From Mucidula mucida (lineage: Eukaryota; Basidiomycota; Agaricomycetes; Agaricales; Physalacriaceae): a DNA stretch of 64,000 nt. The translations under genes and the position numbers were made by a program. The notes beneath the pieces are model-generated. The model ran no database searches. It saw nothing but the letters and a program-made list of their open reading frames with translations, and had not been told where the DNA came from. Shown here piece by piece: positions 3,585 through 42,155 of the stretch. The first letter of the stretch is position 1. Every line of letters begins with the position of its first letter. The stretch covers positions 205,067 to 269,066 of the forward strand of contig JADNYV010000041.1 in assembly GCA_015501055.1 (NCBI GenBank). The letters are read 5' to 3'.

Positions 3585-6438
3585 TCACTGAGTCTTCTTA
3601 GTGACGGGAAAAATAACGTTTTGCGTTTTCTTGGGTTTAGAATAACGCTTTGCTCGTCTCGCTATAACGCAGACACCTGCAATGACGATCACGACCAAGA
3701 CGTGCAGCTCACCAAAAATTGCCTCTCCGTTCGAATCATTGTACCCAAGGACGTGGCGCTCGAACCTGTCATCGTCAAAAGGCAGGACGGAGGTGTCCAA
3801 TTCCGACGCATACCCTGCGCCTTGATCATCAGCCGCCGCCCATAACGCATGGATGCTCCAGGTGCCTGGGGCACCGTCACACCAACCGTGATAAAAGAAC
3901 TCATTCAACGTCGTCGGAAAGGTGGTGCGCGGCGTCGAAGGCGCGTTCAATTTTGGTAGTCGGGGTTGAAGTCTGATTCTGTCCATATTGAAATCGGTAG
4001 ACGAAGGATGTGCTTGAAGAAGCTTTCGATAAGTGCAATCGATCCTTCCGTAAGGTCCTTTCCGTTGGCAGTCCGAGCAAGCGTCACGCCCATCGTCGCT
4101 TCGTACAAAGCTACGAGAGGGATGTTCTTCATTTCGATGATGCAGAGCATCGCCAGTGTTATGGCGAGGATATCGATTCGGCGACGACCTATGGTGTTGA
4201 CTTCGAGTGCGACATGATTCGCAATACCGCCCCCAACAACTAGGCTGGTGTCCAGCTTCTGATGCAATGCCGACTGCATCTCGTTTTCACTGGATTGGAG
4301 GACAGAATATGCGGTACGTGATTTCCGAAGGTATGGGGTGAAGACGGTGTCAATCCATTTGGGCGAGCCATCGAACGGCGGCGGAATCATGGCTCCCTTG
4401 TTTTCGATTGGTTGTAGGACGTCCATATCTAGCTATAATCGAAAATGAGATGATAGATTCCTGAGAGCTTGACAAACTTACTTGGAGTCTCGTCATTCTG
4501 TCTGGAAAGACGTAATGCTTGGGCAAGCCTCGCGACAAAGTTAGCATGCCGGCCTCGTAGCAGGCTGCCGTGAAAGCCTTGAAGGATGGTTTGAGGACCT
4601 GCTTTAGGCCATCAGCAGAGGCCATGTCCGCATCAGCATAGCGGTATCGGAGCAAGGCCATAGGCGCCTTCCCGTCGAAAATGAGTTTGTTGGCTTCGGT
4701 TTTCCACTGAGACATTCCTCGCGCCGCCAGTGCCGTCAGAAACTGGTGCGTTTTAGGGCTGATCGGTTGTATGCGGGAAAGCCCGAGGCGAAATTCCTAC
4801 AAGTCAACGCGGCGAAGAGCAGGTAGGACAGCATGAACAAATTTGCGCGGTATCTGCGGAATTGCGCCTTCCGAAAGGGAGAGGCAGTGTTGTGGCAGAC
4901 AAGTCTCGAACTTTTGGAGCATGGTCAGAATGTCGTCGTTCTGCGGAAGATCACAACCGTGAAGAGCCAAAGCTATGCCTTTGATCTGTGCAAGGGTGTA
5001 ACCGACGCCTCCGATTATGTTGGCTCTGTCGTACATGCAAGCACAAGTCGGTACCATGTCGAGGCACTCCGCTTGAAAAGTAGGGCTATAGCCCTGTAAT
5101 AGGATTTTGTAGATCATGTTCTTTTCCTTCGCTCTGTAGATAGGTGTGTAGAAGTGCCGCGCGAATAGGATGTGTACATCTTCGACCGACGGGAAGGCTG
5201 AGGTTGCCGGCGCCCCTGTGAGGGATTCAATGTGACATCGACGAGCAAGGTGGTCGTAGCCCAACACGATGACCATAAAGGTAGAACGTCTACTAAACAA
5301 CGTCCGGTTCTTTTCATAATAGGCCTATCGTGGATGAATGAGCATACAGAACGTACGAATTACCAAACTCAACTGACCAGTAGCCGTTTCAGTAATTCTC
5401 CTCTTCTAGCGCCTTCCTTGATTTCGTCGCCAGGAAAATCCTCGGGGTATCGCTCCAGCAACGAATGAATAGAGTCGTCGACAACGTCTACGATCTTAGA
5501 TTCAATAGTAGCCAAAGTAGACTTGGGAGAGATTTCGAGGGGATCCAATGAGAAATCGACCTCCAATATGAAGTTCATGGAGTGAAAGTGATCTTGGGCA
5601 TATTCCGCTATTTTGAGCTGACCGAAAGTTTGGTCAAACACAGATTCGTAAGCCTTGTCCATGAAAGAGCCATGGGTTTTCACTAGCCGAACGGAGTCAC
5701 GTTGGGATGCTTCAGGGGCAAAAAATCCCATAGTCGAGTCCGCGACCAAAAAGGAATACTGTATGCACCCAGTGTGGTCGTCGAATAGACCACTGCCAGA
5801 CAGCAAGTGTTGCATAAGGTCTAATGACGGTTCGTCCTAGAAAGAAGTGAGCTATAGGGATGGTTGAGGTTGTGGTCACAAACCTCATCAATGGATCCCA
5901 CGAGATAGATTGGGCGGTCTTCGTCTGCCGACTGCCCAACGGGCAACAGAGGTCCGATTATGGGCTGTATCGTAGGCGAGGCTGCGCGAGCTCGCTTTGC
6001 GGAGTTTGAGGATTCTGGCGCCTCTAAAGATGCTTTCCGTTTCAAAGAGGGTGATGGGTGAATGAGGAATTGAATCTGATTGGGATTACAGTTTCGGGTA
6101 TGACCCACGGGAAATTCCCCATCTACGTGGATGGAGCCGCGAGGAAGATCGTAGCCGGATCGCCCATATAGCCTTAGCTTTGGATCGTCTGTTGCCACAT
6201 TGACATAGTACAATTCGTTCACATCCACTTTTGCGCCACATTGGCAAGCAAGGTCGTGAGACGTCTGGATGCTGAGAGCGGCCCGAGTGGCAAAGTCATC
6301 ACAAGCGGCGCCCGTCCCCTTCATTCTTGGAGACCAGCACGTATAATAGGCGGGCGTCTTGTTGTGACCAACGATCACAGCTTGGAAGGTGCGTTTCGGT
6401 ACGTTTGAAGCCGTTTGGGCCATTGGAGCTGGCGTCAA
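3585..6438 (-). CDS. AAA-ATPase-like plus PD-(D/E)XK nuclease protein, long form A (apparent frameshift)
   Basis: Multi-exon gene starting at ATG 6438 (or the in-frame ATG 15 bp downstream). Order of segments: an N-terminal head of about 195 residues with a basic KRKASLE/AKRARAAS patch; an ATPase-like region with VIVLGYDHLA at the Walker B position, KILLQGYSPTFQ and VGYTLAQIKGIAL; then YEAGMLTLSRGLPKHYVFPD, corresponding to the GYLT..PN block of PF09820/PF08011 proteins. The nuclease core is GRRRIDILAITLAMLCIIEMK, i.e. D..E-x-K, preceded by ALEVN. The tail LHVLVVIVIAGVCVIARR is strongly hydrophobic and followed by Lys/Arg. Near 3950 the frame changes by one base between DFNPDY and the block APSTPRTTFPTTLNEFFYHGW. 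Known: such NTPase-nuclease pairings occur in transposon- and Crinkler-like proteins. Inference: nuclease-bearing partner of the short gene at 6642, transcribed divergently. Confidence 0.6.
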
Positions 6439-6641
6439 GACAGAGAAAGGTGGTGGTTATAGTTCAAGTTGAGCATTACGAGCCATGTTCCGAGGGGACG
6501 TCCATTGTTCGAGCAATGCGCTGTGTTGGTATTGTTTGGGTCGCGTGATATCACATGATCTGTCCTTTGTTCATTTCGGAAACTCCGGCGGAGTCTTAAA
6601 ATATCGTTGACCTACCACCACCACCACCTATCTACATCAGA
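6439..6641. promoter_or_regulatory. Divergent promoter between long form A and short form copy 2
   Basis: Only 203 bp separate the two start codons. At 6545-6560 lies gtgatatcacatgatc, a perfect 10-bp palindrome (GTGATATCAC) overlapping a CATGTG E-box-like core (GATCATGTG on the minus strand). A run of CCA/ACC triplets (about 6613-6628) precedes the short-form ATG. The same palindrome and CCA run recur upstream of copy 3 (11658-11673). The other head-to-head spacer at 39.1 kb holds GATCACGTG. Confidence 0.5.
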
Positions 6642-8340
6642 ATGAGCGACCTGATTCACGACGCGTCCCATTTCTCCGCATTTTCGCGTTATCGCGACGA
6701 TGATAGGAAATCTGTGCATTCTGTGCATTCTGGTACGACGCGCGCGTCTTTCATCATGGTTTCTGCTAATACATCCATCAGATTCCTCAGACACGACTCT
6801 CGTTGAGGACCGTGCCGACGTTCTCTCGCCTTCCTCGAGCCCCAATGGCAAAGAAGAATTCATCAAGCAAGTGTGGACCCAACAAACTTTTCCCGTTCTG
6901 GCTAGCCCGCCGTACACGCTATCTCTAGACCAGTGCTACCCAGATTCGCCCCTACTTGATATGGAGGACACGTTCGTCGATGCCAGCCCGCCCATCTCTT
7001 TAGGCTCGGATCTCGTCAAGACCATTGGTGCCGAATCGGTAAGTGGCTTCAAATCGAAAGTCAACGTTTCTGAATGTCTTGCAGTATATACCAATGCCGT
7101 CCGATGTTTTTCACTCGCTTCTGCAATTCGAGGGCGCGATATGGGTCAACAAGTTGCCATTCGTCCACTCGTTATGTGCGTCTCGACGATTCAGCGGCGA
7201 CACGCACAAGAAACTAAGCTTAGTGCGACGACCCGCCGGCTTTGGGCAAAGGATGTTTATGTCCACCGCGACCTTTTCTTGTGAGATGAACTCCAGGGAT
7301 ATTGTTGAACGACTTTTGAATTCGCCGCCCTGCTCCCCGCTCAAGCATGAGTACCTCGTCCTGTCTATCGATATGATGCGCGCATTCGAGGGGCCTGCAG
7401 AGAGCCTTGAAGATGCGATGAACGGCTACATGGATGGTCTATGGAGAGATTTTGTTCGGAACTATCATGTTGTCCTGGGCATGCCTCGTACGACCTCTGA
7501 TAACAAAAACTGGGATTGGCGCTCGTCTGCCACTATAGTTCCGTGGATCATGGTCAGTCATGTCCCAATGCTGACCTTCTGCTTTACATTGACAAATTTC
7601 TAGCGCTACATATGTAATGCGGGATATCGTCTGCTATTGTTCATCGACAATTTCAACCACCCCTTCATACATTCTACGCCAGAAACGATTGAGACGATGC
7701 CATCGCCATATCTCGTTATCTTGTACGACCTATGCTGAGTTGGCTGGAGGGTGGATGATTGTGGTGGCATGATCTTGGGCGAGCCTCTGTCCGAGGAGCC
7801 GTCTTGGGTCGAGGAAGCTACAGATCTTTTCGAGCCCATGCTCGGGACATCTCACAGGACGCCTCTTCCCTTCATGGTGCGTTCGGCTTCACATGGGAGC
7901 AAGTGAGCACGATGGCGGCGGAGGTCTTACCCATCGCGGAGGAGAGGACAAGGTGCCTGGAGGAGCTGCGCGAACATTGTGCGACATATGGCAAGGAGTC
8001 ACATTGAATACAGCGTGGACGACGTTCTCACCTTTTTGCGACGGAGACACTACCCCCATATTCTAGTCCGGAGATGCCGCCTTGGCCATATGATGAAGAA
8101 GACGACGAAGACTCGACGTGAACTGTTACCTCATTTGCGCTTATCGTTGATAGCCTTGCTATGTACTTTACTTCAATATTCTGATCTCATTCCCACTGTA
8201 TATTATACGACTACCTGCGTCCATACCTTATTAGTTATACACATAGAAAATGTATGTTTACCCGAAACCCAGTGTACAATAGGCTCATTTAGTGAAGCGG
8301 CCCCCAGGCCATTTACTAGAGCAAATTTGACGATTGAGCC
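6545..8340 (+). repeat. Segmental direct duplication, unit 1
   Basis: The unit runs from the palindrome gtgatatcacatgatc through the whole of copy 2 to past its stop (attagttatacacatag, then ..catttagtgaa..gacgatt..). It is matched in the same order and orientation by 11658-13445. Coding parts are nearly identical by eye; the promoter and the 3' flank also match, with small indels. Confidence 0.8.
6642..8121 (+). pseudogene. AAA-ATPase-like protein, short form, copy 2 (C-terminal third frameshifted)
   Basis: Exons 6642-6732, 6782-7038, 7085-7552 and 7604-8121 have the same phases (1, 0, 0) as the intact copy 4, and the 468-nt core exon has the identical length. The core reads IWVNKLPFVHSLC, LVRRPAGFGQRMF, FIDNFNHPFIHS. 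The P-loop Lys is Gln and the following Thr is Arg. Compared with copy 3, exon 4 lacks single bases near 7699, 7752, 7761 and 7839, and has further small changes near 7980, so the downstream blocks (GGMILGEP, GAFGFTWEQV) lie in changing frames. The N-terminal Ser/Asp-rich exon is intact. Upstream it faces the long nuclease form A. Either a real pseudogene or a stretch with base-calling deletions. Confidence 0.65.
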
Positions 8341-10149
8341 ACACAACGCGGCGCCGTTGCACGGCAAAGCCCACCACCTCACTCGCGTTACGCCAATCGT
8401 TGCCTTTCACTCAGGAAGTATGTACTTTTGATGTCCGACTGTCAATAAAACTCGTCGCTCACTCGCATTGTCTCCATAGCCTGAAGCCTTGCTACATTGA
8501 CTGAGACAAACCAATATACTATCAGAGATGAACGACTTGGCTCAATTATCAAATTGTTTCATGGTGTACATGTGGCGCCGACGAAATACTAAGAAACGTG
8601 TGTTTACCATGTACACACTAATCTGCCAACAATAGCTTTACAACGCTAGTGCTCTCCTCCATTACGTTTTGAACTCTGGACTGATTCGAAACAACTTCAG
8701 AGATCGTCGGTCGAAATGAAGCTTACTTTGTTCGTCAGCTTGAGGTTCATTAAACAACGCGAAACTAGCGATGCCTTTTTGAATTATTTACCGGCGATAC
8801 TGAAAAGTACCTACAGCGACCCATTAAAGCCGCCCTTGAACAGGCGAGAAAGACAGAGCCTCCTCGTCAAGCATCTCCGCCTAGTAGTACCGCACGGGGT
8901 CAAAGCCCACGCACATGAACCAAACAAGCCTCCATCCCCGCTCCCACGGCACGCGAGATAGACCAGGAAGAATGGTATGAAATTTCCGGCAGTCTGAAAT
9001 TCCATTGTATTACAGTCATAGGTTCTGACCCGGCGAACACGGTGACGATGAGCATCGGAAATGAGTTTTTGTCCTTCCCGAACAAGTTGTGCAAGGATTC
9101 GAGGTTCTGTCAAAGCTAAGACGAGAGGGAACGGTTATAATCTTTTGGTGCAAGGTTTTCCTAGAAGCGACGTGAGCGCGTTGGAATCATAGAATATAGA
9201 AGATACCTCCAGGAATTTTGCATTGTTGGCGCGTTTTTTAGACTGCGAAAGTTATTTGGCCTGTCCATAGGTTTAGACAATCCCAAATCGACATGAGTGT
9301 GAGACACGACGAGACCGCAGCTGATGAGGCGCGTTCATGGCAATAACGAGTATTCGCCACGGATATGCGAGACTGATCTATGGCTGCGCGGCGGTCGAAG
9401 ATAATATCTTGGGATTCCGAACATATAACGCCAAGATCATACAAGTAACAGGGTATAGCGCTGGTCTCAATGGCATCGCATTTCCGTTGGATCGGTGATT
9501 ACACTAAAGAACAATTGAGAGGAATCGCGACAATAGTGAAAGAATACGCACTTTGTAGTTCCACCGAATGCCACAGGTTGAAGATGGTCTACCAGCACCA
9601 GTGACCGATACGACTTCGGGTGGACGCGTCGTGAGTCTTATCGCGGCGAGATTGACAGAATTTAATCAGTCGAAGACACGTTCCCGATGCAGTGTTTCTG
9701 CAGGCTTTCGTAAAAAGGAAGAAACGCTTAAAGAAAAGAGCTGGAAGGAGAGGATTAAAAGGAGGCCTGTCCAGTTGATGCGTCAAAAAGCGGCGTTGCC
9801 TTCGCCTTGAAGATGCTCGTTCCAAGTCTCCGGTCGATGACGCCGCCCATGCCTGGATATCACGCCTAACGTCGAGTCTTCCTCCTGCCACCACTGGCAG
9901 CCAATATGAATCCGCAAGAAACAAGAAACTCACAGTGCGACGAGTACGCCACCTTCTGCAACCCCGGTACCGACATCGTACGCCCCATGGTCCACTACTC
10001 GTGCGTAGCCAGACGCGCCAATGTTCCGAATTGACCCTGCCATAGACATCCCCTTTGATCCTACTCTGCAATCATGCCGGCTACCAATATCAAAACATCT
10101 GCGCCCATTACCCGTTCAGCAGATGCCACCAACCCAAAATCAAAACATT
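8122..10149. other. About 2 kb without a supported gene
   Basis: Short open frames (for example 8716-8961 plus and 8811-9113 minus) show no family motif, conserved splice pattern or signal peptide. The first 200 bp still belong to the duplicated unit. About 9800-10140 immediately precedes the TAF4-like piece and might contain more of it, but I could not align it. Confidence 0.4.
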
Positions 10150-10813
10150 CCCCGAAGATTCTGTCCACTGGCACTTGGGGCGCGCTTGCAGGACCTCATC
10201 ACGGCCATGTTGCCCGCCCCCGCACTAATACCCAATTCGACCAACCAGCGCCCTCGTATGAGGATGGTCAGCCCATGTGGAGCATTCTCGTGCGCAGTGA
10301 TGTCACCAAGCAGCTCGCTGCTCTCGAAAAGATTGCACGCGAAGAGGAGACGCGCATACAGCAAGAACGAAAAAAGCGCAGACATGGCCCGCTGCTGCCA
10401 CTCGCTGCCAGGTGCAGGGCCAATGCCATCGCAGACACGAGCTGTGAGGCCGAGGTGGCTCCAAGGAGAAGCGAAAGAAGGATGGCCCGGGCGTGACAGC
10501 GAGGACGTACGCAATAGGATGTCAAATGTCGTCGCGAGTCAGGCCGCGTATCAGTGGCAAATATTCGTGGATGACCGCTGCCAATGCGGGTGTCCCGACG
10601 CCCGCACAACAAAGCCTGCTCATCACTTTCACCAGCGACGACGACAATTCCCGCGTCGGACATGTTCTGGCGAAGATGACTACGGCGACGTCGACGCTGC
10701 CACCGGTGGAACAGGATACGCGCTTACCTGTTACGTTGAGAGACGCCATGTTTGTCGTTGACAAGGAGCGTGGGCATGGCGGTGGACGTGGCGCTGCGAG
10801 AGGATGGATTTAG
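10150..10813 (+). pseudogene. Fragment of TAF4 (TFIID subunit) C-terminal region, broken over several frames
   Basis: Blocks typical of the C-terminal domain of basidiomycete TAF4 appear in order but in different frames: LALGARLQDLITAML (about 10160), SYEDGQPMWSILVRSDV and KQLAALEKIAREEETRIQ (10250-10370), EDVRNRMSNVVASQAA (about 10500-10550), GKYSWMTAANAG and finally LRDAMFVVDKERGHGGGRG, AARGW with a stop at 10813. In the family this last block ends the protein, so the natural 3' end is present. The N-terminal part is not found nearby. At least three frame changes are needed. Inference: a partial gene duplicate (a full TAF4 should exist elsewhere), not a working gene. Confidence 0.75.
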
Positions 10814-11657
10814 TGCCAGGACTATGTGATATGGAGGTTCAATTGCATATTTTGACTGCTGATGTATAGATAGTATCTGTTCTAGGAGGTGAGCCATCCG
10901 CTCGTTTCTTTCCTCCAAGGCTCACAGAGTTTTCAGTACTGCATTGTCAATTGTAACGGACTCCTCGGTCTCAGACAGCGAACTCTGCGATGCGGGGCGC
11001 CTTTTATTTTGACTGGTCATGGTGTTGACCTTTTAGGAGGCGCATACATGCTGCCGCTGTTCGATATGGATTCTGTCTGGGTCTACTCAGGATGTGTGCG
11101 ACTCGTCGTTTTGGGTGTTCCGCGTCCGTTGCATCCACTTCTCGATTCAATCAATAGAACATTATGAAAACTCGTATCTATTGACGCCGAATCCGATACA
11201 CCAGAGTATCCGGAGACCCATGCTACCAATCCTGTTGGCTACCTGCACCGACTAGATCCAGCAACTTGGCTGCTTCCATGCACAACAACACGTTGAATGT
11301 AATGTTCATCAGCTGGCTACATGGAATAGTCCAACCACTCCTTCTTTAAATCTTGCACCCGACTGCATAATCGCGTCCGCCAAATCGCACAGAATTTGTT
11401 TCAATCAAAGAATGGCACAACAAAAGTCTTCATTCGAGCCGAGAACGTGGCAGAGGCTGACCAAACTGACCAGCGCGGACCAGTCAGAAGCTTGAAGCGC
11501 TGAATGGCGTCTCCACCTTCCGTGGGAGGTTGTGCAGCATGCAGTGCAGATGGTTCAGCATATGAGCTAGACCGGATTACGAGAGGGGGCGCGTGGAGCG
11601 GAAAGTGGCGCAGAGCTGACGAGTCCGCCAATAGCAGAGGCTGACGAGGAATGAACG
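10814..11657. other. Gene-poor stretch
   Basis: A 92-codon frame (10889-11167, plus) and an 88-codon frame (11401-11667, minus) lack recognisable motifs. Unlike the equivalent place upstream of copy 2, no nuclease-form partner gene is visible upstream of copy 3. Confidence 0.4.
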
Positions 11658-13445
11658 GTGATATCACATGATCGGCCTTTGTTCATTTGGGAGTCAAAGA
11701 TTACGTTGACCTAACCACCACCACCACCTATCTACATAGCATGAACGACGTCTTCCCCGACGCGTCCAATCTGTCCGCGTCCAATTTCTCCGCATTTTCG
11801 CGCGACGATGATAGGAAATTGTGCATTCTGGTACGACACGAACGTCTTTCGTCTTGATTTGTTTAATCCAGCCATCAGATTCCTCAAACACGGCTCTCGT
11901 GGAGGACCGTGCATCGGGCCCCAATGGCAGGAAGAATTTGTAAGCAAGTGTGGACAGATTCAACATTATCCAGGACATCCCCCAACAGACTTTTCCCGTT
12001 CTGGCTAGCCCACCGTTTACGCCGTCTCTAGACCAGCGCTATTCAGCCCCCCCGCAGCCGCTGCTTGATTTCGAAGACATATTCGTCGATGTCAGCCCGC
12101 CCATTGCGTTAGACTCATTTCTCGTCAAGACCATTGGTGCCGAATCGGTAAGTGACTTCAACTCGAGACTCGTCCTGTCTGAATGCATGTAGTATATAGC
12201 AAGGCCTTGCGATACTTTATTCTCGCTTCTGCGATCCAAGGGCGCGATATGGGTCAATAAGTTGCCCTTCGTCCACTCGCTATGCCCGTCTCGACGATTC
12301 AGCGGCGACACGCACAAGAAACTGAGCTTAGTGCGACGACCCGCCGGCTTTGGGCAAAGACTGTTTATGTCAACGGCGACCTTCTCTCATCAACTCAGTT
12401 GGAAGGATAACGTGAGACGACTTTTAGACTCGTCCCCCTCCTCCCCGCTCAAGCATGAGTGCCTCGTCTTGTCTATCGATATGATGCGCGCATTTGAGGG
12501 CCCTGCAGAGAGCCTCGAAGATGCGATGAATAGCTACATGCATGGTCTCTGGAGAGATTTCGTTCCGAAGTATCATGTTGTCCTGGGCATGCCTCGTACG
12601 ACCTTTGATAACAAAAACTGGGATTGGCGCTCGTCTGCCACTATAGTTCCGTGGATCATGGTCAGTCATGTCCCAATGCTGACCTTCTGCTTTGCATTGA
12701 CAAGTTTTCTAGCGCTACATATGTAATGCGGGCTATCGGCTCCTACTCTTCATCGACAATTTCAACCACCCCTTCATACATTCTACGCCAGAGACGATTG
12801 AGACGATTGCCATTGCCATATCTCGTTATCTTATACGACCTATGCTGAATTGGCTGGAGGGTGGGATGATCGTAGGTGGCATGATCTTGGGCGAGCCTCT
12901 GTCCGAGGAGCCGTCTTGGGTCGAGGAAGCTACAGATCTTTTCGAGCCCATTGCTCGGGACATCTCACACGACGCCTCTTCCCTTCATGGTGCGTTCGGC
13001 TTTACATGGGAGCAAGTGAGCACGATGGCGGCGGAGGTCTTACCCATCGCGGAGGAGAGGACAAGGTGCCTGGAGGAGCTGCGCGAACATTGGCGACATA
13101 TGGCGAAGGGCGCATATGAATACAGCGTGAACGACGTTCTCACCTTTTTGCGACGGGAGACACTACCCCCATACTCTAGTCCGGCAATGCCGCCTTGGCC
13201 ATATGATGATGAAGACTCGGAGCAAGACGACGAAGACTCGACGTGAACTGATTCCTCATTTGCGCTGTTATTGTTGATCGCCTTGCTATGTACCATACTT
13301 CAATGTTCTGATTTCATTCCCACTGTATATTATATGACGACCTTAGTTATACACATAGAAATGCATTTTCTCCGAAAACCCACTGTACAGTTGGTCATTT
13401 AGTGAATCAGCGTTCACGCAAATTGCTAGAGCAAGATTGACGATT
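11658..13445 (+). repeat. Segmental direct duplication, unit 2
   Basis: Second unit of the duplication matched by 6545-8340. It begins at gtgatatcacatgatc, contains copy 3 and ends in the shared sequence agttatacacatagaa..catttagtgaatc..gacgatta. The units are about 5.1 kb apart, in direct orientation. Confidence 0.8.
11741..13246 (+). CDS. AAA-ATPase-like protein, short form, copy 3 (core intact, N-terminal exons out of frame)
   Basis: Exon 1 (11741-11830) is 10 nt shorter than its match in copy 2, and exon 2 carries an 18-bp loss and about 26 bp of extra sequence, so I find no splice that joins the first ATG to the core in frame. From about 11950 the core is continuous: ..12147, intron, 12193-12660 (468 nt), intron, 12713-13246. 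Motifs are IWVNKLPFVHSLCP, LVRRPAGFGQRLF, LLLFIDNFNHPFIHS, GGMILGEPLSEEPSW, GAFGFTWEQV, EYSVNDVLTFLR and the acidic tail DDEDSEQDDEDST. The P-loop Lys is Gln and the Walker B Glu is Asn. It could still be expressed from an internal start. Copy 2 shows the mirror situation: good N-terminus, broken C-terminus. Confidence 0.6.
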
Positions 13446-13951
13446 AATCATCTGGCATTCCACATGAAAGCTGTGTTTGTCGCGCATTTGGCTGGGACGT
13501 CTCTATAGACTCGTCGTTGCGGCATCATGCCCGTCGTGAGATTTCTTATACCAGAGCCAGACGCGCTGATTTTCGAGTAAGAGAGCACGAGCAAGGACGA
13601 ACTTGGCTGCTCCCGAATATGAGGTGATCACCAGGGTCTGGGGTCAGCGCCACATTTGCACTCTCCCTAGTGCGGCATGATTGATATTTATGTTTAGGGT
13701 TCACTTGGAATTGTTCGGCAGCTTGAAGAGGTTTGCCGTCATGGACGCGAGCTTGATTAGACCAAGATTCAGTCGAAGGACTTTAATCATCAGATAAGTA
13801 ACTGGTACCCAAGAGTATCTTCTGTAAAGGCTGCCACACGCTATCGTCGCGTCGAGGTACTTGCCATATTGGCACACAGGGAAGATAATCGGAGGAAACG
13901 AGATCGCTATAGCATGGTACAACAGCATACAGTAATGTAGAATAACACAAC
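13247..13951. other. 3' flanks of two convergent genes
   Basis: The first 200 bp are shared with the duplicated unit. The remainder is the 3' side of RPS26 on the other strand. No gene is supported. Confidence 0.4.
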
Positions 13952-14571: not shown

Positions 14572-14884
14572 CTTGAGGTCGGGTCGAGCAGGACGTTGAG
14601 CGTGTCGATGGGACTGTCTGCAGATTTGCTCTGGATGGATGATGTAAGCTTGTAGTTCCCACGGTCTCAATGCCGGGCGGCACTTCCCAAAATAGCCCAC
14701 AATGGCCTTTGTTCGGTCTTTGTACAATTGCATTGTGCAACCGCGCCCTGGCTATTGTTCTGTATTGTGTTCAAGGTCTACATAAGCGAGTCTCCGATGG
14801 CTGGGCTCTCTCATTCTCCCTTCCGCTCTTCCAGGACCACTTGAGCCCGGTGCTCCCTTCCCTTGCTAGACTTTCTTTGACGAC

Positions 14885-30790: not shown

Positions 30791-31045
30791 TGCAAAGCAG
30801 ATTGAGTAAGTTGTTTGAACAGTCAGTGTACTTTACTTGAATTTTCTAGACCTAAACGAAACATTTGGGCGAGGTAACAACTTGGAGCCAACGTCATCCC
30901 CAGACCTGCCTCAAGCACTTCCCACAGGAATCATAGCAGTCACCATGTTACTACCTTCCCCTTGAGTCGGAGGAGGCGGTGAGTTGACCAGCGACTTAGC
31001 CGATACAGCCAACATGCTACATTTTTTAAGCATTTGCTCAACCCT

Positions 31046-33381: not shown

Positions 33382-34133
33382 ATCTTCAGAACGAAGAAGA
33401 GGTCAGTGTAATGAAGAAAAATCAAAGCACTAAACTGAGCAGATCTGAATGCTAGCCGACTCGATATATACTCCATCGTCAGCTGTCATCTCACGAAATC
33501 GACGTAACCGAGCCAGCTGAGCGAGATCATTAGTAAGTCGTGGTATCCGTTCCTGCATATCTTCTGGTTTGGGTTTTTTCGGAGAGCACATACCGTAATG
33601 GTAAGACAGGGGACGCAGACACGCGCGAGGTACTGGACGAAAGAGACGTCGTAAAGCTACATCTCAACTGTCAGATCAGAGTCATGAACAATTGAGTTGT
33701 TGAAAGGTGATGTGTGAGCATGAAGCAATAACACAGAATGCTGGGAGCGTGTACGTGCCAAGCCAACTCAGAGGCATGAATCTTGCATCCGAGGCCCGGA
33801 ATGATGAGATTCCTTGTGCCTGCAGTGCTTACAGTGTTGAAAACTGCTTCACAATGATGGTGTTGGACTAAGAGCGCTTAAGTCCGACCCGTGGCCGAAA
33901 CACGTCAACGGCATTTGCGTGAGAGGTAGGCATTTGCAATGTGGGAACACTGCGTTCATGGAGGACGGCATTCAATGTCCTCAGTATGGTGAATGCTAAC
34001 TGTCAGTGGAACAACAACCGGAAATGGCTCATAGAAATATAACAACCACCTTGAGCGGAGTTTGAATCATGCGTTTATATCAGCCACCACCATCAACCTC
34101 ACCTACCCTACCTACCCTACCCATTAACCCAAT
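33382..34133. other. Intergenic region
   Basis: No gene supported. Near 34094-34124 there is a short array of cctacc/ctaccctac units. Confidence 0.4.
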
Positions 34134-34665
34134 TTGCACAATCTACTTAGTACTGACGCTCCAATTAACAGTATGAAATGTGTGCGCGTCAATTTCAACG
34201 GTGCATCAGGTAAAGACTTGCGTCATCGGATACTAACATTAGCAACAAAGGCATTAGATGACTCCCAGTTGTTCTCGTCTTCAGACGAGTTGTTCTGCTC
34301 TATATTGTTCAGAGGATCCTCCAATGAAATATTTACCTTCTCCCTCACCCCACCAATGGCACTGGCCCTGTACTTGGGTTACCGACATTTTAACTACCAC
34401 TTGGCGCCGTCTATCGCACTCTCTAAGCTCTATTCGAATAGTCTGCTTGTCGTGAGTCTTTCTTATCATTCTGATTACACCTCCGATACTTCTTTCAGAT
34501 CCTGAATTCGCGCGTGTTCATGGGGCGGATACCGTTATTGGAGTCCTCGGACGGTATCAATACATTTTCCTTACTTGACACCCCGTCAATGGATGCACGG
34601 TTGCGCAATATGGCAGCGGTAGAACGGACACAGCGAGTTTCAGTGAGCTAACCATTTTTCTCCTA
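34134..34665 (+). pseudogene. DUF6534-type membrane protein, C-terminal fragment
   Basis: The block MALALYLGYRHFNYHLAPSI followed by LSKLYSNSLL, an intron (GTGAGT..TTTCAG) and LNSRVFMGR is the characteristic end of the DUF6534 fungal seven-helix membrane family. Upstream residues (LRHRILTLATKALDD) correspond to the preceding loop. The first five helices are absent and no start fits, so this is a fragment. The last residues (SLLDTPSMDARLRNMAAV) form a plausible cytoplasmic tail. Confidence 0.6.
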
Positions 34666-34714
34666 TGCTCGATGAGACTGACGACGTAGACTCGTCACGG
34701 AAGTACTAAGAGAG

Positions 34715-35146
34715 GTGCCTATATATGACCGTTTGAGTAATAATGTATTCTATGTAGCTCCATTCAAGTTCTGTACGTTAGAAACAACTGTGGATCCGCA
34801 AAGGAAGGAAATTGATATCTCTCGTTGTTCTCCTACATTGCCGTGTAACGACATCTACTCATGTCCAAGTAAGTACTTGAACTTCGAAGGGCATAGCGAC
34901 AGGGCCAAGGTGCAACCGGCTCTTTTGAACGAAGGTTTCTCACAGGCAAGCTCGAGTTCTTTTCTCGATGTATACTTGGTTTCAAAAGAATGTTTGGCTG
35001 GTCAAGCGTCCACGGTTCAAGATACAAATGTCCTTGCGGCAATCGGCATTGCCCAAATAGGCAACCGCGACATTCCCGAACTTTCGAGAACGAGTGCGAC
35101 TGGTCCACTGTTCGTCGAGTCTGACATCATACGAATGTTCGAGTAA
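34715..35146 (+). other. 143-codon open frame, unassigned
   Basis: Uninterrupted frame MPIYDRLSNNVFYVAPFKFC.. to ..DIIRMFE. No signal peptide, transmembrane segment or known motif. It ends 68 bp before the heat-shock gene. It may be chance; no splice or codon evidence supports it. Confidence 0.2.
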
Positions 35147-35214
35147 TCTTGAAAGCGGTATAAGAGGAGCCTCGCTGGCCTTGCTCTCCAGAAAATAACA
35201 GCAACAACACTACA

Positions 35215-35601
35215 ATGTCTGTCTACTTCTACGAACCCAACTACCTCTTCGACCGCTTCTTCGAGACTGCTCTTGGGCTGCCCCAGCTTCAGCAGCAAGT
35301 CCAGAGGACTGATAGCACTAACAGGGCGCCGAGCGTCGTCCGACCAAGGTGAGCATATGCTTGCATTTGTTTCATGTATCTCTACTGACTGGGATTCTGC
35401 AGCTGTAGGATGGACCTCCATGAAGACGCGGAAAAGAACATCGTTACCGCGTCGTTCGAGCTTCCTGGACTAAAGAAAGAGGATGTCAACATCGATGTTC
35501 ACGATGGGCGTCTGACTATCACCGGCGAGAGTAAGATCTCCACCGAACGCGAGGAAGAGGGGTACGCTTCAGGCTCGCTCCTCATTGAATGGACCGCGTG
35601 A
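35215..35601 (+). CDS. Small heat-shock protein (Hsp20/alpha-crystallin), C-terminally truncated
   Basis: Exons 35215-35348 and 35403-35601 encode 110 residues. The start MSVYFYEPNYLFDRFFETAL is typical of fungal Hsp20. The alpha-crystallin domain begins with MDLHEDAEKNIVTASFELPG, LKKEDVNIDVHDGRLTITGE and REEEGYA, which are strands beta2 to beta5. The expected next block (RxFGKFSRTLPLP, beta6 to beta9, and the IxI tail) is missing: after GYA the sequence changes to unrelated SGSLLIEWTA and stops. No downstream exon with the missing part was found up to 36.1 kb. The protein would lack the dimer loop and tail needed for oligomer assembly. Probably a recombined or truncated gene. Confidence 0.75.
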
Positions 35602-35700
35602 CTGCGCGTTAACGCGACGGCGAACGCCCCGATGTACTCGTTGTCGCTCATTTTCTCCTTGAACAACGGATTCGGGTCAGGCTTAGCCCACAACGCTCCT
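35590..35700 (-). other. Antisense fragment of a possible protein-coding sequence
   Basis: Directly at the point where the Hsp20 homology ends, the minus strand reads NPLFKEKMSDNEYIGAFAVA followed by LTRSHAVHSM in one frame, which looks like a piece of a real protein. I could not name the family. Confidence 0.25.
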
Positions 35701-35989
35701 CGCAATTGAGGTTGTTTTTCTTGTGATCGTTGCGCTCTAAATGCAACAATCATCGGGATTAGACGCTCTCAGCAATGTCTGTTGCCTCATGGAACTACCG
35801 TGGAGTCGCGGGCAATACAACTCTCAATGCGGTTGCTGCCATCAGATCTTACGTTCTGGTCCGAGTCGATATATAGTTCGAAGAATGATTGCGACGACGC
35901 TTTGGCACCCTCTGCACTTCCCACGCCCTTCGGTCTCTCTCAAATGTCTTCTGTTACCTCCATTCCCAACAACATCGCAGAGCTGTGAG

Positions 35990-36330
35990 TCTGAAAATTT
36001 CGATTACACGGATTTAGCTCACGGAAATAGTACTGGTCCGTTGGTGAATGCTCTTGCAGTCTCTCCTCCGAGTACATTCACCAACGACGCGTCAGCTCCT
36101 TGGGCACTTTTTCAACTGGGCGCTATTCGGAATCCTGTGTGTGCAGGCATGTGAGTACTATTCATTGACGAGTGATGACAGCAAATTGACAACACGGTAA
36201 CAGATATCTATTATCTTGCCTTCCCAAATGATCGTTTATGGCCAACGAAAGCTCTAACCATATTTGTCTTCATTTTGGAGTTGGCGCAGACCGTCGTCAA
36301 TACCAGAGACGCCTTAAGATGAAATGGTTT
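35990..36330 (+). pseudogene. DUF6534-type membrane protein, N-terminal fragment
   Basis: The block ALFQLGAIRNPVCAG is followed after an intron-like gap by YYLAFPNDRLWPTKALTIFV and LELAQTVVNTRDALR, then a stop. This is the first-loop and second-helix region of DUF6534 proteins. Downstream, a related piece may start at LRADFNVATGAASSFVQ (near 36580). The rest is unrecognisable. Confidence 0.5.
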
Positions 36331-37490
36331 CAAAATGTAGTCAGCGAACTTGTGTATGCTTTGATAACGATTAAAGTTGGAGTGCGAGGCCGCTGGGACA
36401 GGTTTATGCCGCATTCGGTGAACTCACAAAACCTCGACACGGTAACTTTGCGATGGCAGCGCTGTAACGCCAAAATGCGCTTATGCCTTACTATGTTAGG
36501 TCAGTTTTATACTTCGCTTCAGCCTATCATATGAGATTCTGACTCTTACACAAGGACAACCATGCCAGCCAGCTTTCTTCGAGCTGATTTCAACGTAGCG
36601 ACAGGTGCCGCGTCCTCATTTGTACAAGAATCGTATCGTGTTATATCATGCAGTCGGGCGGCCCACTTACTGTAGACAGTGTCGCCATCATCACCACTAC
36701 CCGCGTACGCTCGTCATCCAGCTTTTCGTGCTCGCCTACCGTTATCGCTCAATTCCTTTCATATCTCCCGTCGTCCACCCATCTCTGATTATTGCCCTTC
36801 TCCATCCTCAGAGAGCGCGTCACAAACTTCAAGAATTTCCCAAAGGTGTTGCCTCCTTTCCAGGCGCGTGCAAATGGGTCAATCTACGCCTTTTCGAATT
36901 GCACACCGACCGTCTTACTTCATAGTACCGCCGACTCGCCCATCCCATCAGCTAATAGATCACCCCTCTACAACTTGTTCGCCGCTACCTTTCCCCGTTC
37001 CTACACATGTATCTGTGTCGCGCTCATTGCGGTAACTGCCTGCAGATTTTCGCCCGGACGAACGGGGTGAAGTTTCTCTGATCACAGAGCAGACGTTGCC
37101 GGGCGGAACCGTATCAGTTTGTGCTGAGGTTCTTTATTCCAGTAGGCTTCGCTCAGAAGCCTCGGATGTTGGTAGAAGCCGTGTTGATACTCGTAACTTG
37201 ACGATACCGCAATGTCGAGAGAATGACAGCTCTAGGTGGTCAAGAATTCTGAGATGGAGATGGAGATCCAAAGAATGGAAACGGGACCAGACTTCAACGG
37301 GACTCCGGCCGATTGTGAAGATTCAAAGCAACGTCGACGAGGAGGGAAACAGAAGAGGTCGATCACTTTGCCACAACAGAATCCAAGGAACCATGTAGAT
37401 TCGATCTGTTTGCGATAGAAAGGAAGCGATATAGAAAGCAACACGACAACAAATGACACAACAGCAATAAAAGATTTCGAGTCCATATAG
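36331..37490. other. Gene-poor stretch
   Basis: Open frames at 36605-36925 and 36679-37035 overlap each other and lack motifs. They may be further decay products of the DUF6534 sequence. Confidence 0.35.
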
Positions 37491-39030
37491 TTATGTAGAT
37501 ATTCCTAATACAATTTCTACCTCGTCCATCTCGATGTTTTCTTCGTCATCCGATTCGCTGCCTTCACTATCAGTGTCACAATAGTGATATAGACCCTCCT
37601 CTTCAAGACCGGGTTGTCCAGTTCGTTGCCTGAGGCGACACAGAACATCGCTCATGGAGTACTCGATGTACTCCTCGTGACGGTATGCCGGCTCGCTGGC
37701 CTTGACTTCGTCTATGAACGAGAGTTGGACATCCAAGTCCTCCAAGAGCTCCTCTGCGAGCGAAGTAACCTGGGGCAAAGAAAATCCAAAAGCACCTCTG
37801 ACCCTGTTGTCGTGCGTGATGTCACAGGCTATAGGCGTAAACAAGGCATCCCCCTTGTACGACGAATGAACCCAAGCCGGCTCGTCTTCGATGGGTCGCC
37901 CTAAGAGGATGCCACCGGCAACAAATTGTTGGTCGAGGGCGTCTCGAATTGGACGAACGACGTAGACATCCAGTAGAAAAGCCGCTTCAAACGCATCTTC
38001 GGGCGTTAAAGAATGGATGAGCGGCCAGTTAAAGTCATCAACAAGAATGACCAATTTCACAGCGTCACGTAGATAATACTGTAGGTCATATGAGATAAGA
38101 ACATCAGAAAGTTCGACACGTACGATGATATTCTGGAAAGTCTTGCGCGAATCGTATTCCAACAAGGCCTCTATGTCACCGGAAGACAAGCCCAAGCTAG
38201 CGCCAACTTTATTCAAGAGGATCTCGAGGTGGCAGTTCATGTAGTGTTTAATGCGGCATTCCATGCTACCACTAAGGCTATAGTCAAAGGCCAGGCCCAT
38301 GTTGAGATTAAGAGTGACTTGAGGCGTAGACGGATCGAGGCGGCACACCGGGGAGATGCCAAAAAGGTGGTAGAAGTCATGGGGAGTGTAAGATTCATGG
38401 GCACGCATAGCGGCGCGAAGGAACGCTGTCCGACCCAGCCCAGCAGGGCGCCTCACCAGGGCAAGCTTACTGTGTATAAGAGGGCAGAGAGAGTAAACAG
38501 AAGCCATTTTGTCGACCCATACGGTGCCGGGGGAAGAGAGGAAATCATCAAAGTCGTCGCCTAGTGGCGTTCGGATCTGAATTGTTTCACCCTGGAGGAA
38601 GGTTAGTGGAGGGTCGAGGACAAGCACGGAGAACTCACTGGTGCAGGCTTCGCTGTTGACTTGAATAAATGTGTGCGGACACGAAGCGGTGCCTTGTACA
38701 GAGAGATGGGTTGACTAGAAGGACACGGATATGCGCTTGGGGGTAGGCATATGGACAACGATGGGGATGAAGGTGGGGATAAAGAACACGGTTTTGTTTC
38801 GTCAGGGCTTGATGGGGGTGTACCCGACGACGAGTTGTCTGAGTTTGGAACCTCAAGTAATGAATCGTAAGAGTCCGTCGAAGATGATGATCCTGAGTCT
38901 AAAGCAGCGACGCTAGTCAAAAATGGGTGAACACCGGAAACGCGCGCTTACCAGAGTCATCAGAGTGGATTGATCTTCGGTCGTCATCATCAATGGTGTC
39001 GCGCATTGTATCGTTAGGGAGAACGTCCAT
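37491..39030 (-). CDS. AAA-ATPase-like protein, short form, copy 4 (intact)
   Basis: Exons 38952-39030, 38639-38898, 38124-38591 (468 nt) and 37491-38078 splice with phases 1, 0, 0 to an unbroken 464-residue frame. The fourth exon boundary removes a 45-nt in-frame intron (GTACGTG..CTACAG). The N-terminus is acidic/Ser-rich (IDDDDRRSIHSDDSDSGSSS). The core reads VWVDKMASVYSLCP, LALVRRPAGLGRTAFL, LVILVDDFNWPLIHS, AGGILLGRP, RGAFGFSLPQVTSL and YIEYSMSDVLCRLR, and it has a strongly acidic tail (DSEGSESDDEENIEMDEVE). P-loop Lys is replaced by Arg; Walker B reads VDDFN. Its 5' end faces long form B across 233 bp. Role unknown; a regulatory or structural pseudo-ATPase is an inference. Confidence 0.7.
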
Positions 39031-39263
39031 GGTGGGTATGGGTGTAGTAAATGGGAGAGTCGATGTGGTAAGTGGTCAACGCATTAATTCAGACTCTGCT
39101 GCCCTGAATGATCACAACAAAGGACCGATCACGTGTTTAACTTTCACTTTGAACACACCCGTGACCACGTTTTTGGACGAACAATGGGACTATGGCTTTA
39201 TGGACAATGCACTGAGCACTCGCCTGCCCTCCTTTTCTTCTCTCACCTTCACTCCTACCATCA
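39031..39263. promoter_or_regulatory. Divergent promoter between short copy 4 and long form B
   Basis: 233 bp separate the two ATGs. GATCACGTG lies at 39127-39135; a second accacgt lies at 39164-39170. The first element corresponds to GATCATGTG (minus strand) in the other head-to-head spacer. CACGTG/CATGTG is the E-box core recognised by bHLH factors. Confidence 0.45.
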
Positions 39264-42155
39264 TGCCGAAAATCTTCCCGGTCACCGTCGTCCTCTTCGA
39301 TAAATCTGATACCAAAGGCTATAGAATCATATATAATACCAGGTCCCACATCGTATCACGCCGAAGATCTACGCGCTTTCAATGCAGAATTCATCTGCCA
39401 GCGCATCCAACAAGCTCCAGCATCCGGAGGTTTTGTCCCCGACACTATCTACAAAGTGGACGTACCCAACGACGCACCACATTTGGAAGCGATGGCAGCG
39501 AAACGACCAAAATCCACCGAGACTTTTAAAGGTCAACTCAACAAAAACTTCTTCACCAACAGCAAGGTTGGGCGGATCTATTTCGCCGCATATGCTAAAT
39601 CCTCCCATGCTCCCACCGCGGTTAAGCGCGAACGGAGCGCAGAGGTTATCGGAGCTGCTGCAAAGAAGGCTCGCACTCCGCGCACTATAGAGGCTGTTGC
39701 GACTTGTCGATCTGTAAACCTCTGCCCGGTTGCGATTGAAATACAAGGGTACGCTGATGGCCCCATCTACATCGTTGGAGACGACAAAGGACGCTTGGAC
39801 CTGGTACGTCGCTGCCTCTCTATGCGTAGAACTCACAAATAAACAATCACTAGTCTGCGCCACCTTTAGATTTCGAACAATGCTTGAATCCTCCACCCAG
39901 CCGCCGATACCTAATCTCCGATTCGACTATGAACATTCCAAAATTCTTTGAATTGTCTGGGGATAACACGTTGGGAGTTTTCACACCCGTGCCATCTGAT
40001 GCTTGTAGCTTACGCCGATCGCAAGAAGAAGTTGCGGTACCCCGAAACGTTGGGGAAAATGGCGGTTGGTCCCGATGGTTCTTTAAGCTATCCGCCCTCC
40101 AAAGACTTTGTCATGGACTTCGATTTTGCTAACTTTGCCGTCGAGAGTCTCAACTCGTCGACTTTTGAGGTAAGACTCAATCGGTATATATATTCCTGCG
40201 TTGCAGAATTCATCCTCAAGTACGATGAATTCCTTCAATTTGGTCCAGCCGGAGAGTTTCTCAAAAGTAAATATCTGGATGGTCAAACGGCTCTGTACAA
40301 AGTGCTTGTAAGGGTCCCCATGATGTGATATGTCTGCCGTTTACTGACCTCCTGTTTTTAGCAACACATCGAGGAAAAGTTGTACGAAACTGGGGACTCT
40401 CGTGTCTTCACGATCATTCGTAACTACGACGCTCTTAGGAACCTCGCAGAAGTGAAGTCACTGACAACTTCGGAGTCGCCGACCAACCCCTCAGAGTTTC
40501 CGAGTCCTCAATGTGTTACAGACATGTTCAAAACGTACCTGTACAACACGCTCTTCCATTTCCAGGACAAAAGCGGAACAATATCCAAAGTGTTCCTTTT
40601 TGGCGCCTCTCCCGCCTTTTTAGCGGACTTGCGTCCTTCCGCGTACACCGACCTCACCACAATGGGCGTAGTTGGGGTTGCGGGATTAGTGCACACCAAG
40701 TGCAAGTCTACCTATCGGTTGCCGTCGGGGCTAAGTCCTTCCTCGGGATCAATCGCCTTCGTAACATTCTCTGTGATATCCTTCCGGGCTATGTTTACGC
40801 CCCCGACACCCCACCCCAATATCCTCGACGTCTTCTTCACACAGTGCTCCCAGCTCTCTGTAGTGAAAGGCTTTGTGCTGCTCGGGACTCCTTGGAGATC
40901 ACGCGCGCTTGCCTACCCGTGGCCACCGGCCTTGCGAACCGCTACACGGGCCTAGCTGTCCAGACTATGTATATTCGCGGGAAGCATCTCTGGCAAAGTC
41001 ATTTTGACAATCTGCGCGTGCAAAGATATGTTCCTATGTCCCCACATTCCACCCGATTTCGTCATAGATACCACGATTTCAAGGCAGACCTCTCAAACGG
41101 GACCTCTCATACGAAAACTGTCTTCGTCCCAAACCGACCAGACCCTTTCTTTGCTTACTGTCTCGACGCTGGGTATTTGACGCTGCGTTTTGCAGAAGGC
41201 AAAGAGGACACCGACGTTTTCCAATACACGTTCCCAGGTTCTGCTGTCTACTGGGCTGTAGGTTCTTCCTTCGTACTCAGTATTTGATTTCTGACTTCCC
41301 TTTTTTCAGTTTTTTCGAGGCATTATCGACGTTGTCGATCACAGTGGCCTTGCTATTCAAAAACCATTTGACGGTTCTCCGGAATGGATCTTCAACGCTA
41401 TGGATCCATATCTCAAAGATTCTCGCAGCACACTTTTCAATGCCAACGCGCCTGAAAACACGTTCCAGAGTATCAGGACCAGCATAATGCACATGGCGGA
41501 GGCACATACTGGGGCCAACGCGGTCATGGAGGCTGAGATGGGTGAGAAGCGTCGAGTTGATTCGGTGGTCCTCCTACCTCAAAGAAACGCCACGATTGTC
41601 ATCGAAGACAAGACTATCAGGCTCTTTGACTTTCTTGAGGGTACCATGGGTATCAAACTCGAGCGATGGCCGGATACGCATACGGTCATCGAAAGCAAGC
41701 TCACCGAGGAGCACTGGCGGCAGGCTGAAGCGCTTGCGGTGCACCTCCGTAAGCTACATCCCCGCGTTTTCACGGAGACGGAGCTTCCAGCAGACAAGGA
41801 TATTCCCGATGCATCCACCGTGCCTTTCCGCACTTTTGACAACCTCCCTACGGAACTCGGGCACTTCTTCTTCATGGGCTGGGTGAACAAAGTCTATGGT
41901 CGCCATAATATTTTCAACCTCTTGTCTTCTGCCGAATGTCAAGGTCGAGATTACGAGTTGGATCTGCAGTGCGGACAAGTCAACGACGAGCGTTTCAAAT
42001 GCCTACCATGCCCAAAAGACGAGAAGAACTTCATAACGGTAATTGTCGTCATCGTGGTGGGAGGTGTTCGTGTTTTGGCGCGGCGCTCAAGGTTGACAAT
42101 GCCCAATAAGAGCTGCGATTACTATCTTGTGCATACAGGGAAGAACCCACCATAG
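39264..42155 (+). CDS. AAA-ATPase-like plus PD-(D/E)XK nuclease protein, long form B (several frame changes)
   Basis: ATG 39264 starts MPKIFPVTVVLFDKSDTKGY. The head continues in a neighbouring frame with VPDTIYKVDVPNDAPHLEAM and a basic VKRERSAEVIGAAAKKART patch, then YADGPIYIVGDDKGRLDL (compare PIYLVGS in form A). Then come DFVMDFDFANFAVESLNSST, VFTIIRNYDALRNL (Walker B position), SKVFLFGASPAFL, HTVLPAL and YCLDAGYLTLRF..FPGSAVYW. The nuclease part runs from about 41400: RRVDSVVLLPQRNATIVIEDK supplies D..E-x-K. The tail is FITVIVVIVVGGVRVLARR. Frame changes occur near 39340, 40000 and 40680. Domain order equals form A. Known nuclease-fold logic supports a metal-dependent nuclease; substrate unknown. 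Confidence 0.55.

What the first reader, a model, noticed from the sequence alone, without database searches (positions are those of the whole stretch)
3585..42155. Recurrent head-to-head pair: short AAA-ATPase-like gene plus long ATPase-nuclease gene
Seen: two long-form genes (3585-6438 minus; 39264-42155 plus) each face a short-form gene (6642-8121 plus; 37491-39030 minus) across 203 and 233 bp. The two loci are 31 kb apart and have opposite absolute orientation, so they are not one simple tandem copy. Known: PF09820-type P-loop proteins are often fused to PD-(D/E)XK nuclease domains, and related NTPase-nuclease architectures occur in transposons and Crinkler-type proteins. Inference: the divergent pair is a functional two-component unit (nuclease plus ATPase-like partner), possibly for genome conflict, such as transposon or nuclear incompatibility control. 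I know of no description of this pair in fungi.
Basis: partly seen in the sequence, partly recalled or inferred. Interest (0 to 1): 0.9.

Follow-up and report, generated by a model that had tools for sequence, protein, structure and literature searches.

The report
Divergent ATPase and nuclease gene pair
A wood-decay mushroom carries many copies of a two-gene unit, an ATPase-like gene and a nuclease-like gene reading away from one shared promoter, which looks like a coupled DNA-cutting system whose job is still unknown.

Summary
The window lies in Mucidula mucida (Physalacriaceae). Short genes are PF09820-type NTPases. Long genes carry a header, a second PF09820-like domain without P-loop (profile match to the shorts, E 2e-7) and a PD-(D/E)XK-like motif. 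In this genome 16 of 17 long 5' ends examined face a short gene head-to-head, in five sequence groups; the exception is a distant relative on C604. Two header fragments lie in tandem with a short instead (16 of 19 if counted). At least ten shorts stand alone. Long and short divergence mirror each other (Mantel r 0.95, n=8). The shared intergenic region keeps a layout (ACAAAGG..ATCACGTG) between groups; a scan with it led to group E, whose long genes my protein searches had missed. In Hymenopellis radicata a long and a short relative sit on contigs of identical length. I read the pair as a co-expressed NTPase plus pseudo-NTPase-nuclease complex. A genome-conflict role (compare Cif, Spok, CR-toxins) is plausible but unproven: structure models were poor, no expression data. 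Both window pairs include frameshifted genes; apparently intact pairs lie elsewhere.

The parts
3585..6423 (-). long1 (group B): header, P-loop-less PF09820-like domain, PD-(D/E)XK-like motif RRIDILAI..CIIEMKN, hydrophobic C-terminal strand; frame break in the nuclease part
6424..6641 (.). shared divergent intergenic region of pair 1, 218 bp
6552..6570 (-). composite promoter element ACAAAGGACAGATCATGTG
6502..6508 (-). ACAATGG, second HMG-box-like site of pair 1
6642..8121 (+). short1 (group B): PF09820 NTPase, Walker A lysine lost (GFGQR), frame breaks in the 3' half
1..1112 (+). short3 (group B), part of a tandem array that begins left of the window; its start codon is at C394:204744
11808..13246 (+). 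short4 (group B), near copy of short1; no long gene found at its 5' end
11664..11682 (-). composite element (ACAAAGGCC..CATGTG) upstream of unpaired short4
37491..39030 (-). short2 (group A): 479 aa gene model with 2 introns (its annotated paralogue P0008 leaves out 15 residues of the model, as if by one more intron); Walker A lysine replaced (GLGRT)
39031..39262 (.). shared divergent intergenic region of pair 2, 232 bp
39117..39135 (+). composite promoter element ACAAAGGACCGATCACGTG
39181..39187 (+). ACAATGG, second HMG-box-like site of pair 2
39263..42155 (+). long2 (group A): header, P-loop-less PF09820-like domain, PD-(D/E)XK-like motif RRVDSVVLLP..VIEDK, hydrophobic C-terminal strand; one early frame break relative to the C582 paralogue

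Best explanation
A two-gene module expressed from one bidirectional promoter. The short gene makes a PF09820-type NTPase. The long gene makes a nuclear protein with an N-terminal header, a homologous NTPase-fold domain that has lost its P-loop, and a PD-(D/E)XK-type nuclease domain. The two NTPase-fold domains pair, and the short protein gates or restrains the nuclease so that it cuts DNA only under a specific condition. Shown: the divergent linkage, the shared ancestry of the two NTPase domains, the mirrored divergence, dN/dS mostly well below 1 in both genes, the conserved promoter layout, and conserved nuclease-type motif residues in most copies. Inferred: heteromer, nuclear location (basic stretches such as KKRIRVD and KRPRSPDK in the models), nuclease activity, co-expression, and use in a nuclear or genome conflict.
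For: 16 of 17 long 5' ends examined face a short. hhalign of long (groups A, C, D) vs short profiles: prob 93.6, E 2e-7, 261 columns. Identity matrices of long and paired short correlate: r 0.947, n=8, reached by 1 of 5000 permutations; r 0.975, n=10, 0 of 5000. dN/dS below 1 in 20 of 21 exon comparisons, long and short alike, 18 of 21 between 0.12 and 0.50. D..(E)xK motif in 9 of 10 aligned longs. Promoter layout shared by groups A, B, C and E; an own-genome scan gave 28 matches vs 5 for the reversed pattern, 7 of them in pair promoters, 3 of these in group E. Long relative P0003 and short relative P0009 of Hymenopellis radicata are each listed with a longest contig of 178943 bases.
Against: No fold confirmed: AF2 pLDDT 38.9 (long) and 48.1 (short); no PDB fold match at E<=0.001; no significant Pfam, NCBIfam or PADLOC hit for the long proteins scanned. 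Walker A lysine is lost in the paired shorts of groups A and B, so ATP use cannot be general. One long (C582:59.4k) and P0003 lack nuclease residues. C604 has a long-like gene without a short, and two header fragments lie in tandem with a short. A prediction that long and short NTPase block types go together in group D failed in the fourth copy, C168. One exon comparison gave dN/dS 1.3 on 11 changes. dN<dS was tested only for four header or near-header comparisons: Z -3.36 for the E header, -1.2 to -1.5, not significant, for the other three.
Confidence: 0.5

Rival explanations
1. Poison-antidote element: the long nuclease is the killer and the short is the antidote, transmitted together and acting in mating, dikaryon formation or spores, as Cif or Spok do by other means.
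For: Longs with a readable 5' end nearly always have a short, while at least 10 shorts stand alone; a short 98% identical to short2 stands without a long at C582:37523; decay and copy-number differences between near-copies; AAA-ATPase-like plus PD-(D/E)XK is the core of CifB (PMC12445526, passages); the Spok nuclease domain is needed for killing, which targets DNA (PMC6660238 and PMC9972908, passages); the HMG-box-like promoter sites resemble the ACAAAGGGA pheromone response element (PMC3248468, passages).
Against: No crossing, toxicity or expression data. Short alone is also expected if long genes simply decay faster. The promoter motif reading is by resemblance only.
Confidence: 0.25
2. CR-toxin (Crinkler-like) effector system, made for use against other organisms.
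For: Header plus NTPase plus nuclease order and nuclear-type basic stretches match the CR-toxin scheme (PMC5289972, passages).
Against: No Crinkler family among Pfam matches at E<=10 for P0001, P0003, P0006, P0007; the short partner is not part of that scheme as described there; the fungus is a wood saprotroph (recalled); the NTPase is duplicated in two genes.
Confidence: 0.1
3. Domesticated or decaying transposon module (nuclease plus ATPase, Tn7-like; the Tn7 comparison is recalled).
For: The pair is copied as a unit of about 5 kb (E: C120 and C937); NTPase-REase proteins are linked with transposable elements in prokaryotes (PMC5289972, passages).
Against: No terminal inverted repeats in one test per group A-E (target-site duplications not tested); copies are few; no transposase domain in Pfam scans of the pair proteins.
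Confidence: 0.08
4. Linked by descent only: an ancestral divergent pair was duplicated repeatedly and the two proteins have no joint function.
For: Mirrored divergence follows from co-duplication; tandem duplication is common here.
Against: Adjacency, orientation and promoter layout are kept between groups whose proteins are 14-36% identical; dN/dS below 1 in both genes.
Confidence: 0.12

Closest known systems
PF09820 AAA-ATPase_like proteins, often fused to PDDEXK_9 (PF08011) in bacteria (fusion recalled)
   Same: The short is a PF09820 protein; the long has a PF09820-like domain followed by a PD-(D/E)XK-type motif.
   Different: Here there are two divergent genes, an NTPase with full Walker A in one (groups C-E) and a P-loop-less domain fused to the nuclease-like part in the other; no PF08011 match was found, with a silent control.
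Cif (cifA-cifB) cytoplasmic incompatibility pair
   Same: A two-gene unit in which one protein combines an AAA-ATPase-like domain with PD-(D/E)XK nuclease (PMC12445526, passages).
   Different: The cifA partner is RNA-binding-like and cifB has two nuclease domains (same passages); here the partner is an NTPase and one nuclease-type motif was found.
Spok spore killers
   Same: Multi-copy fungal genes with a PD-(D/E)XK nuclease (PMC6660238, PMC9972908, passages).
   Different: Spok is one protein with a kinase resistance domain (same passages); no kinase match here.
CR-toxins / Crinklers
   Same: Header, then P-loop NTPase, then REase-type nuclease (PMC5289972, passages).
   Different: No Crinkler Pfam match; a second, separate NTPase gene; divergent promoter.

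Membership tests
PF09820 AAA-ATPase_like (short genes) | Pfam gathering score 26.1 bits | tested here: met
   Groups B 28.5, C 30.3, D 35.8, E 36.4 bits; the group A member P0008 gave no hit
PF09820 AAA-ATPase_like (short genes) | Walker A RPxxFGK[ST] and acidic Walker B (motifs recalled) | tested here: inconclusive
   Lysine present in groups C, D, E; replaced by R or Q in the five paired shorts of A and B; Walker B hydrophobic strand plus D or E in all ten
PF09820-like domain in the long genes | Detectable homology to the short NTPase | tested here: met
   hhalign prob 93.6, E 2e-7 over 261 columns; no P-loop, Walker B reduced to a strand plus [YF]D. Groups B and E were not in the long profile
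PD-(D/E)XK nuclease superfamily | D..(D/E)xK catalytic motif | tested here: met
   9 of 10 aligned longs; C582:59.4k degenerate; P0003 also degenerate (sequence). The motif label is recalled
PD-(D/E)XK nuclease superfamily | Alpha-beta core fold or profile match | tested here: inconclusive
   No significant Pfam, NCBIfam or PDB profile match; AF2 secondary-structure order compatible but pLDDT 38.9
PDDEXK_9 (PF08011) | Pfam match | tested here: inconclusive
   0 matches in this genome and 0 in 14 control genomes; none in the Pfam scans
CR-toxin / Crinkler | Ubiquitin-like header | tested here: inconclusive
   No Pfam hit; AF2 gives strands and helices in residues 10-119 at block pLDDT 50-68
CR-toxin / Crinkler | Secretion or translocation to a host | not testable with these tools
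   no data
Cif pair | cifA RNA-binding-like partner and two nuclease domains in cifB | tested here: not met
   Partner is a PF09820 NTPase; one nuclease-type motif seen
Spok | Nuclease and kinase on one protein | tested here: not met
   No kinase in Pfam scans of P0001, P0003, P0006, P0007
DNA transposon | Terminal inverted repeats | tested here: not met
   No TIR in the flanks of one pair in each of groups A-E; longest chance matches 7-12 bases (first four matches shown per test)

The most novel reading that the evidence does not exclude
A fungal nuclear killer-and-guard system: a repeatedly duplicated two-gene unit in which a pseudo-NTPase nuclease is held in check by its divergent NTPase partner, expressed from a mating-type-HMG-responsive bidirectional promoter, and acting on incompatible nuclei or on progeny that lack the guard.
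Probability: 0.22. Interest if true: 0.88.

Novelty: new variant of a known kind. Interest (0 to 1): 0.62.

Why it matters
Nucleases restrained by a partner are the working part of several genetic-conflict systems. A mushroom-lineage two-gene version with a recognisable shared promoter would give a testable candidate for nuclear conflict in dikaryons, where few genes are known (recalled), and a promoter motif with which to find distant members whose proteins are too diverged for the protein searches that I ran.

Tried and rejected
Structure prediction of long (P0006) and short (P0008) with shallow alignments gave low-confidence models; in the Foldseek search of the short the 50 rows listed of 972 are mostly AAA+ and RecA-like ATPases, none at E<=0.001. 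PF08011 could not be tested (silent control). Positive selection on the header was tested and not found: dN/dS 0.36 (E) and 0.63-0.65 (D). Matching long and short NTPase block types were seen in three D copies but not in C168, so I dropped the co-adapted-block idea and keep only 'mosaic divergence'. The promoter pattern is not specific: of 28 matches 7 are in pair promoters; 3 of the other 21 were read (C217, C69, C71) and none is a pair. The PF09820 genes on C216, C993, C75 and C494 have no long partner in the DNA read. C604 carries a long-like gene without a short; C841 and C349 were not read. No TIRs. PADLOC gave nothing for P0001, P0006, P0008. Literature: nine searches ran; I saw titles and abstract starts, capped at 20 rows (of 22; of 1,148; of 110); none of the listed papers shows such a fungal pair. 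The library lacks most subscription papers and Zhang et al. 2016, so this is no proof that it is unpublished.

Full report
What organism. The window is C394:205067-269066 of a 59.9-Mb assembly with 1047 contigs. A protein named CPB85DRAFT_1254071 of Mucidula mucida lies on a contig of 195466 bases, the length of contig C582 of this assembly, and C582 encodes it with 100% identity over its first 198 residues. I take the genome to be Mucidula mucida.

The observation. Both pairs exist at about the stated coordinates. Start codons lie 218 bp (pair 1) and 232 bp (pair 2) apart. The window also has two unpaired shorts of the same family, at about 1-1112 and 11808-13246. The short at 11.8-13.2 kb is a near copy of short1. 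Long1, short1 and long2 have frame breaks in my models, by decay or assembly error; short2 is a clean 479-aa model. Gene models come from a simple splice-site script guided by homology and are rough, above all at exon borders.

What the proteins are. Shorts of groups B, C, D and E exceed the PF09820 cut-off (28.5, 30.3, 35.8, 36.4 bits); the group A protein P0008 does not match. Paired shorts of groups C, D and E have a full Walker A (GFGK[ST]); in the five paired shorts of groups A and B aligned the lysine is R or Q. The long proteins have no Pfam match (for A and C relatives, for E), but a profile of groups A, C and D aligns with the short profile over 261 columns (prob 93.6, E 2e-7). In the long proteins the P-loop is gone and Walker B is reduced to a hydrophobic strand plus [YF]D where it can be read. 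Downstream lies (I/V/A)D-x(n)-(E)xK, as in PD-(D/E)XK nucleases (label recalled): RRVDSVVLLP..VIEDK (A), RRIDILAI..CIIEMKN (B), RRIDILF..VVTEDKN (C), KRIDTVMLI..HFWEFKN (D), LYVDCYEPEEGAVHELK (E). It is present in 9 of 10 aligned longs and degenerate in the C582:59.4k copy and in P0003. The fold is not confirmed: AF2 means were pLDDT 38.9 and 48.1, the predicted helix and strand order of the long is only compatible, and no solved structure matched significantly by sequence or fold. The header resembles CR-toxin headers by position only.

How general the pair is. By protein searches of the whole genome and reading of the loci, long 5' ends facing a short are: A, C394:244329, C582:57059, C582 near 111.6k, C352 near 16.8k, C777 near 9.0k; B, C394:211489, C284 near 27.4k; C, C394:83083, C466:24305; D, C725:3781, C635:12486, C898:1304, C168:1279; E, C120:77108, C937:7657, C937 near 30977. 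That is 16; 'near' marks start codons not pinned down, and the second C937 pair rests on match coordinates. Where both start codons are placed the gap is 218-340 bp. One further long-like gene, on C604, a distant group E relative, has no short in the 4 kb read. Two more distant relatives (C841, C349) were not read, and C21 and a fragment on C95 lack a 5' end. Two header fragments lie in tandem with a short rather than head-to-head (C394:197721; C65, decayed), which makes 16 of 19 if they are counted; a header remnant faces the short at C394:200393 and is not counted. Several copies are near-identical (C394 and C466; C582, C777 and C352) or close (D; E), so distinct lineages number about eight to ten by my judgement. 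The C582 copy near 98-112k is split by about 11 kb, and C352, C777, C898 and C168 show only the 5' part of a long in the DNA read. Chance of a random long 5' end facing a short within 400 bp is 1-2e-4. That null ignores duplication as a unit.

Shorts without longs. Ten shorts had 0.9 kb or more of upstream DNA read without a long: C582:37523, two on C170, C97, C555, C186, C56, C95, C644 and window 11.8k (genome-wide long searches). For those with about 1 kb read, only a header and the start of the next domain would show. Others stand in tandem arrays on C284 and C394.

Other species. Protein searches of 5.8 billion sequences found only Mucidula and Hymenopellis relatives with names, plus three unnamed fragments. 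The search needs shared 5-residue words, one search scored only the 7996 best candidates, and groups B, D and E were not searched, so wider absence is not shown. In Hymenopellis radicata the long relative P0003 and the short relative P0009 are each given a longest contig of 178943 bases; I infer the same contig; distance and orientation are unknown.

Co-evolution. Pairwise identities of longs and of their paired shorts correlate (r 0.947 with eight pairs, reached by 1 of 5000 permutations; r 0.975 with ten pairs, 0 of 5000). In 20 of 21 exon comparisons dN/dS is below 1, including groups without Walker A lysine; one D short exon gives 1.3 on 11 changes, and five of the 21 involve unpaired shorts. 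Significance was tested only: Z -3.36 for the E header, -1.2 to -1.5 for three others. Copies are mosaics: in E the 3' 2.4 kb of the long is 98-100% identical while the header and the short's N-terminal and NTPase part fall to 72-86% (a third copy in part). Header dN/dS is 0.36-0.65, so this looks like old divergence beside recent homogenisation, not positive selection. Concordance of long and short NTPase block types in three D copies failed in the fourth.

Promoter. The divergent regions of groups A, B, C and E align around AACAAAGGAC(C)nATCACGTGA, with ACTCCG on the short side in most of A-C and GAACAATGG or a close form on the long side in most. B on C284 and C keep the E-box but not a perfect ACAAAGG; D on C725 and C168 has ACAAAGG and CACATG in the other order; D on C635 and C898 lacks both. 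ACAA[AT]GG occurs 6 times in five representative regions against 0.6 expected; the motif was chosen after seeing the data. Unpaired shorts mostly keep the E-box and mostly lack ACAA[AT]GG. Genome-wide, ACAAAGG..CACGTG gives 28 matches against 5 for the reversed control. Seven are pair promoters, four of A and three of E. Group E came out of this scan; its short on C120 was already a PF09820 hit and its shorts were weak hits, but its long was not found by the A-D searches. ACAAAGGGA is the pheromone response element, bound by the HMG factor Prf1 in smuts (PMC3248468, passages). HMG control here is a guess from resemblance.

How it most likely works. Two related NTPase-fold proteins, one with catalytic motifs at least in groups C-E and one a pseudo-enzyme fused to a nuclease-like domain, made from one promoter, suggest a gated nuclease complex. 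Why longs almost never lack a short would be explained if the short controls an otherwise harmful nuclease. Known relatives in working principle are CifB (AAA-ATPase-like plus PD-(D/E)XK with a partner gene; PMC12445526, passages), Spok (PMC6660238, PMC9972908, passages) and CR-toxins (PMC5289972, passages). Membership in Cif or Spok is not met; CR-toxin membership is open.

Verdict. A real, recurrent gene-pair family with a conserved promoter layout, new as far as my searches show, mechanism inferred.

Noticed in passing
window 42958-44274 minus: Plavaka transposase remnant (PF18759, 28.0 bits) less than 1 kb beyond the 3' end of long2.
   Followed up: no
C582:99055-110288: About 11 kb lies between the two halves of a group A long gene; no repeat of 60 bp or more was found between the DNA read on either side, the middle 3.5 kb not read. 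P0001 is the annotated 3' half only.
   Followed up: partly
C394:197721 (left of window) and C65:95.4-97.3k: Header fragments in tandem with a short gene; on C394 one spliced model runs from header into short, on C65 the genes look decayed.
   Followed up: partly
L004 C494:69162-70.7k, with a near copy on C566: A PF09820 gene whose model has a Cys-rich header-like stretch (SQCPCTLGG) at its N-terminus, suggesting header-NTPase fusions without nuclease.
   Followed up: no
C898:3882, C168:3839, C725:797, C635:9549: A second piece of the group D nuclease C-terminus lies beyond the 3' end of each of these D shorts, on the short's strand.
   Followed up: no
window 59322-60047 and 63262-63983: Two direct copies about 3.94 kb apart, 91-96% identical in the blocks found; ORF 58944-60104 has a weak ATG16 match below cut-off.
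   Followed up: no
C582:57059-58652: Two long N-termini in tandem before one nuclease part, as if two copies were fused.
   Followed up: partly
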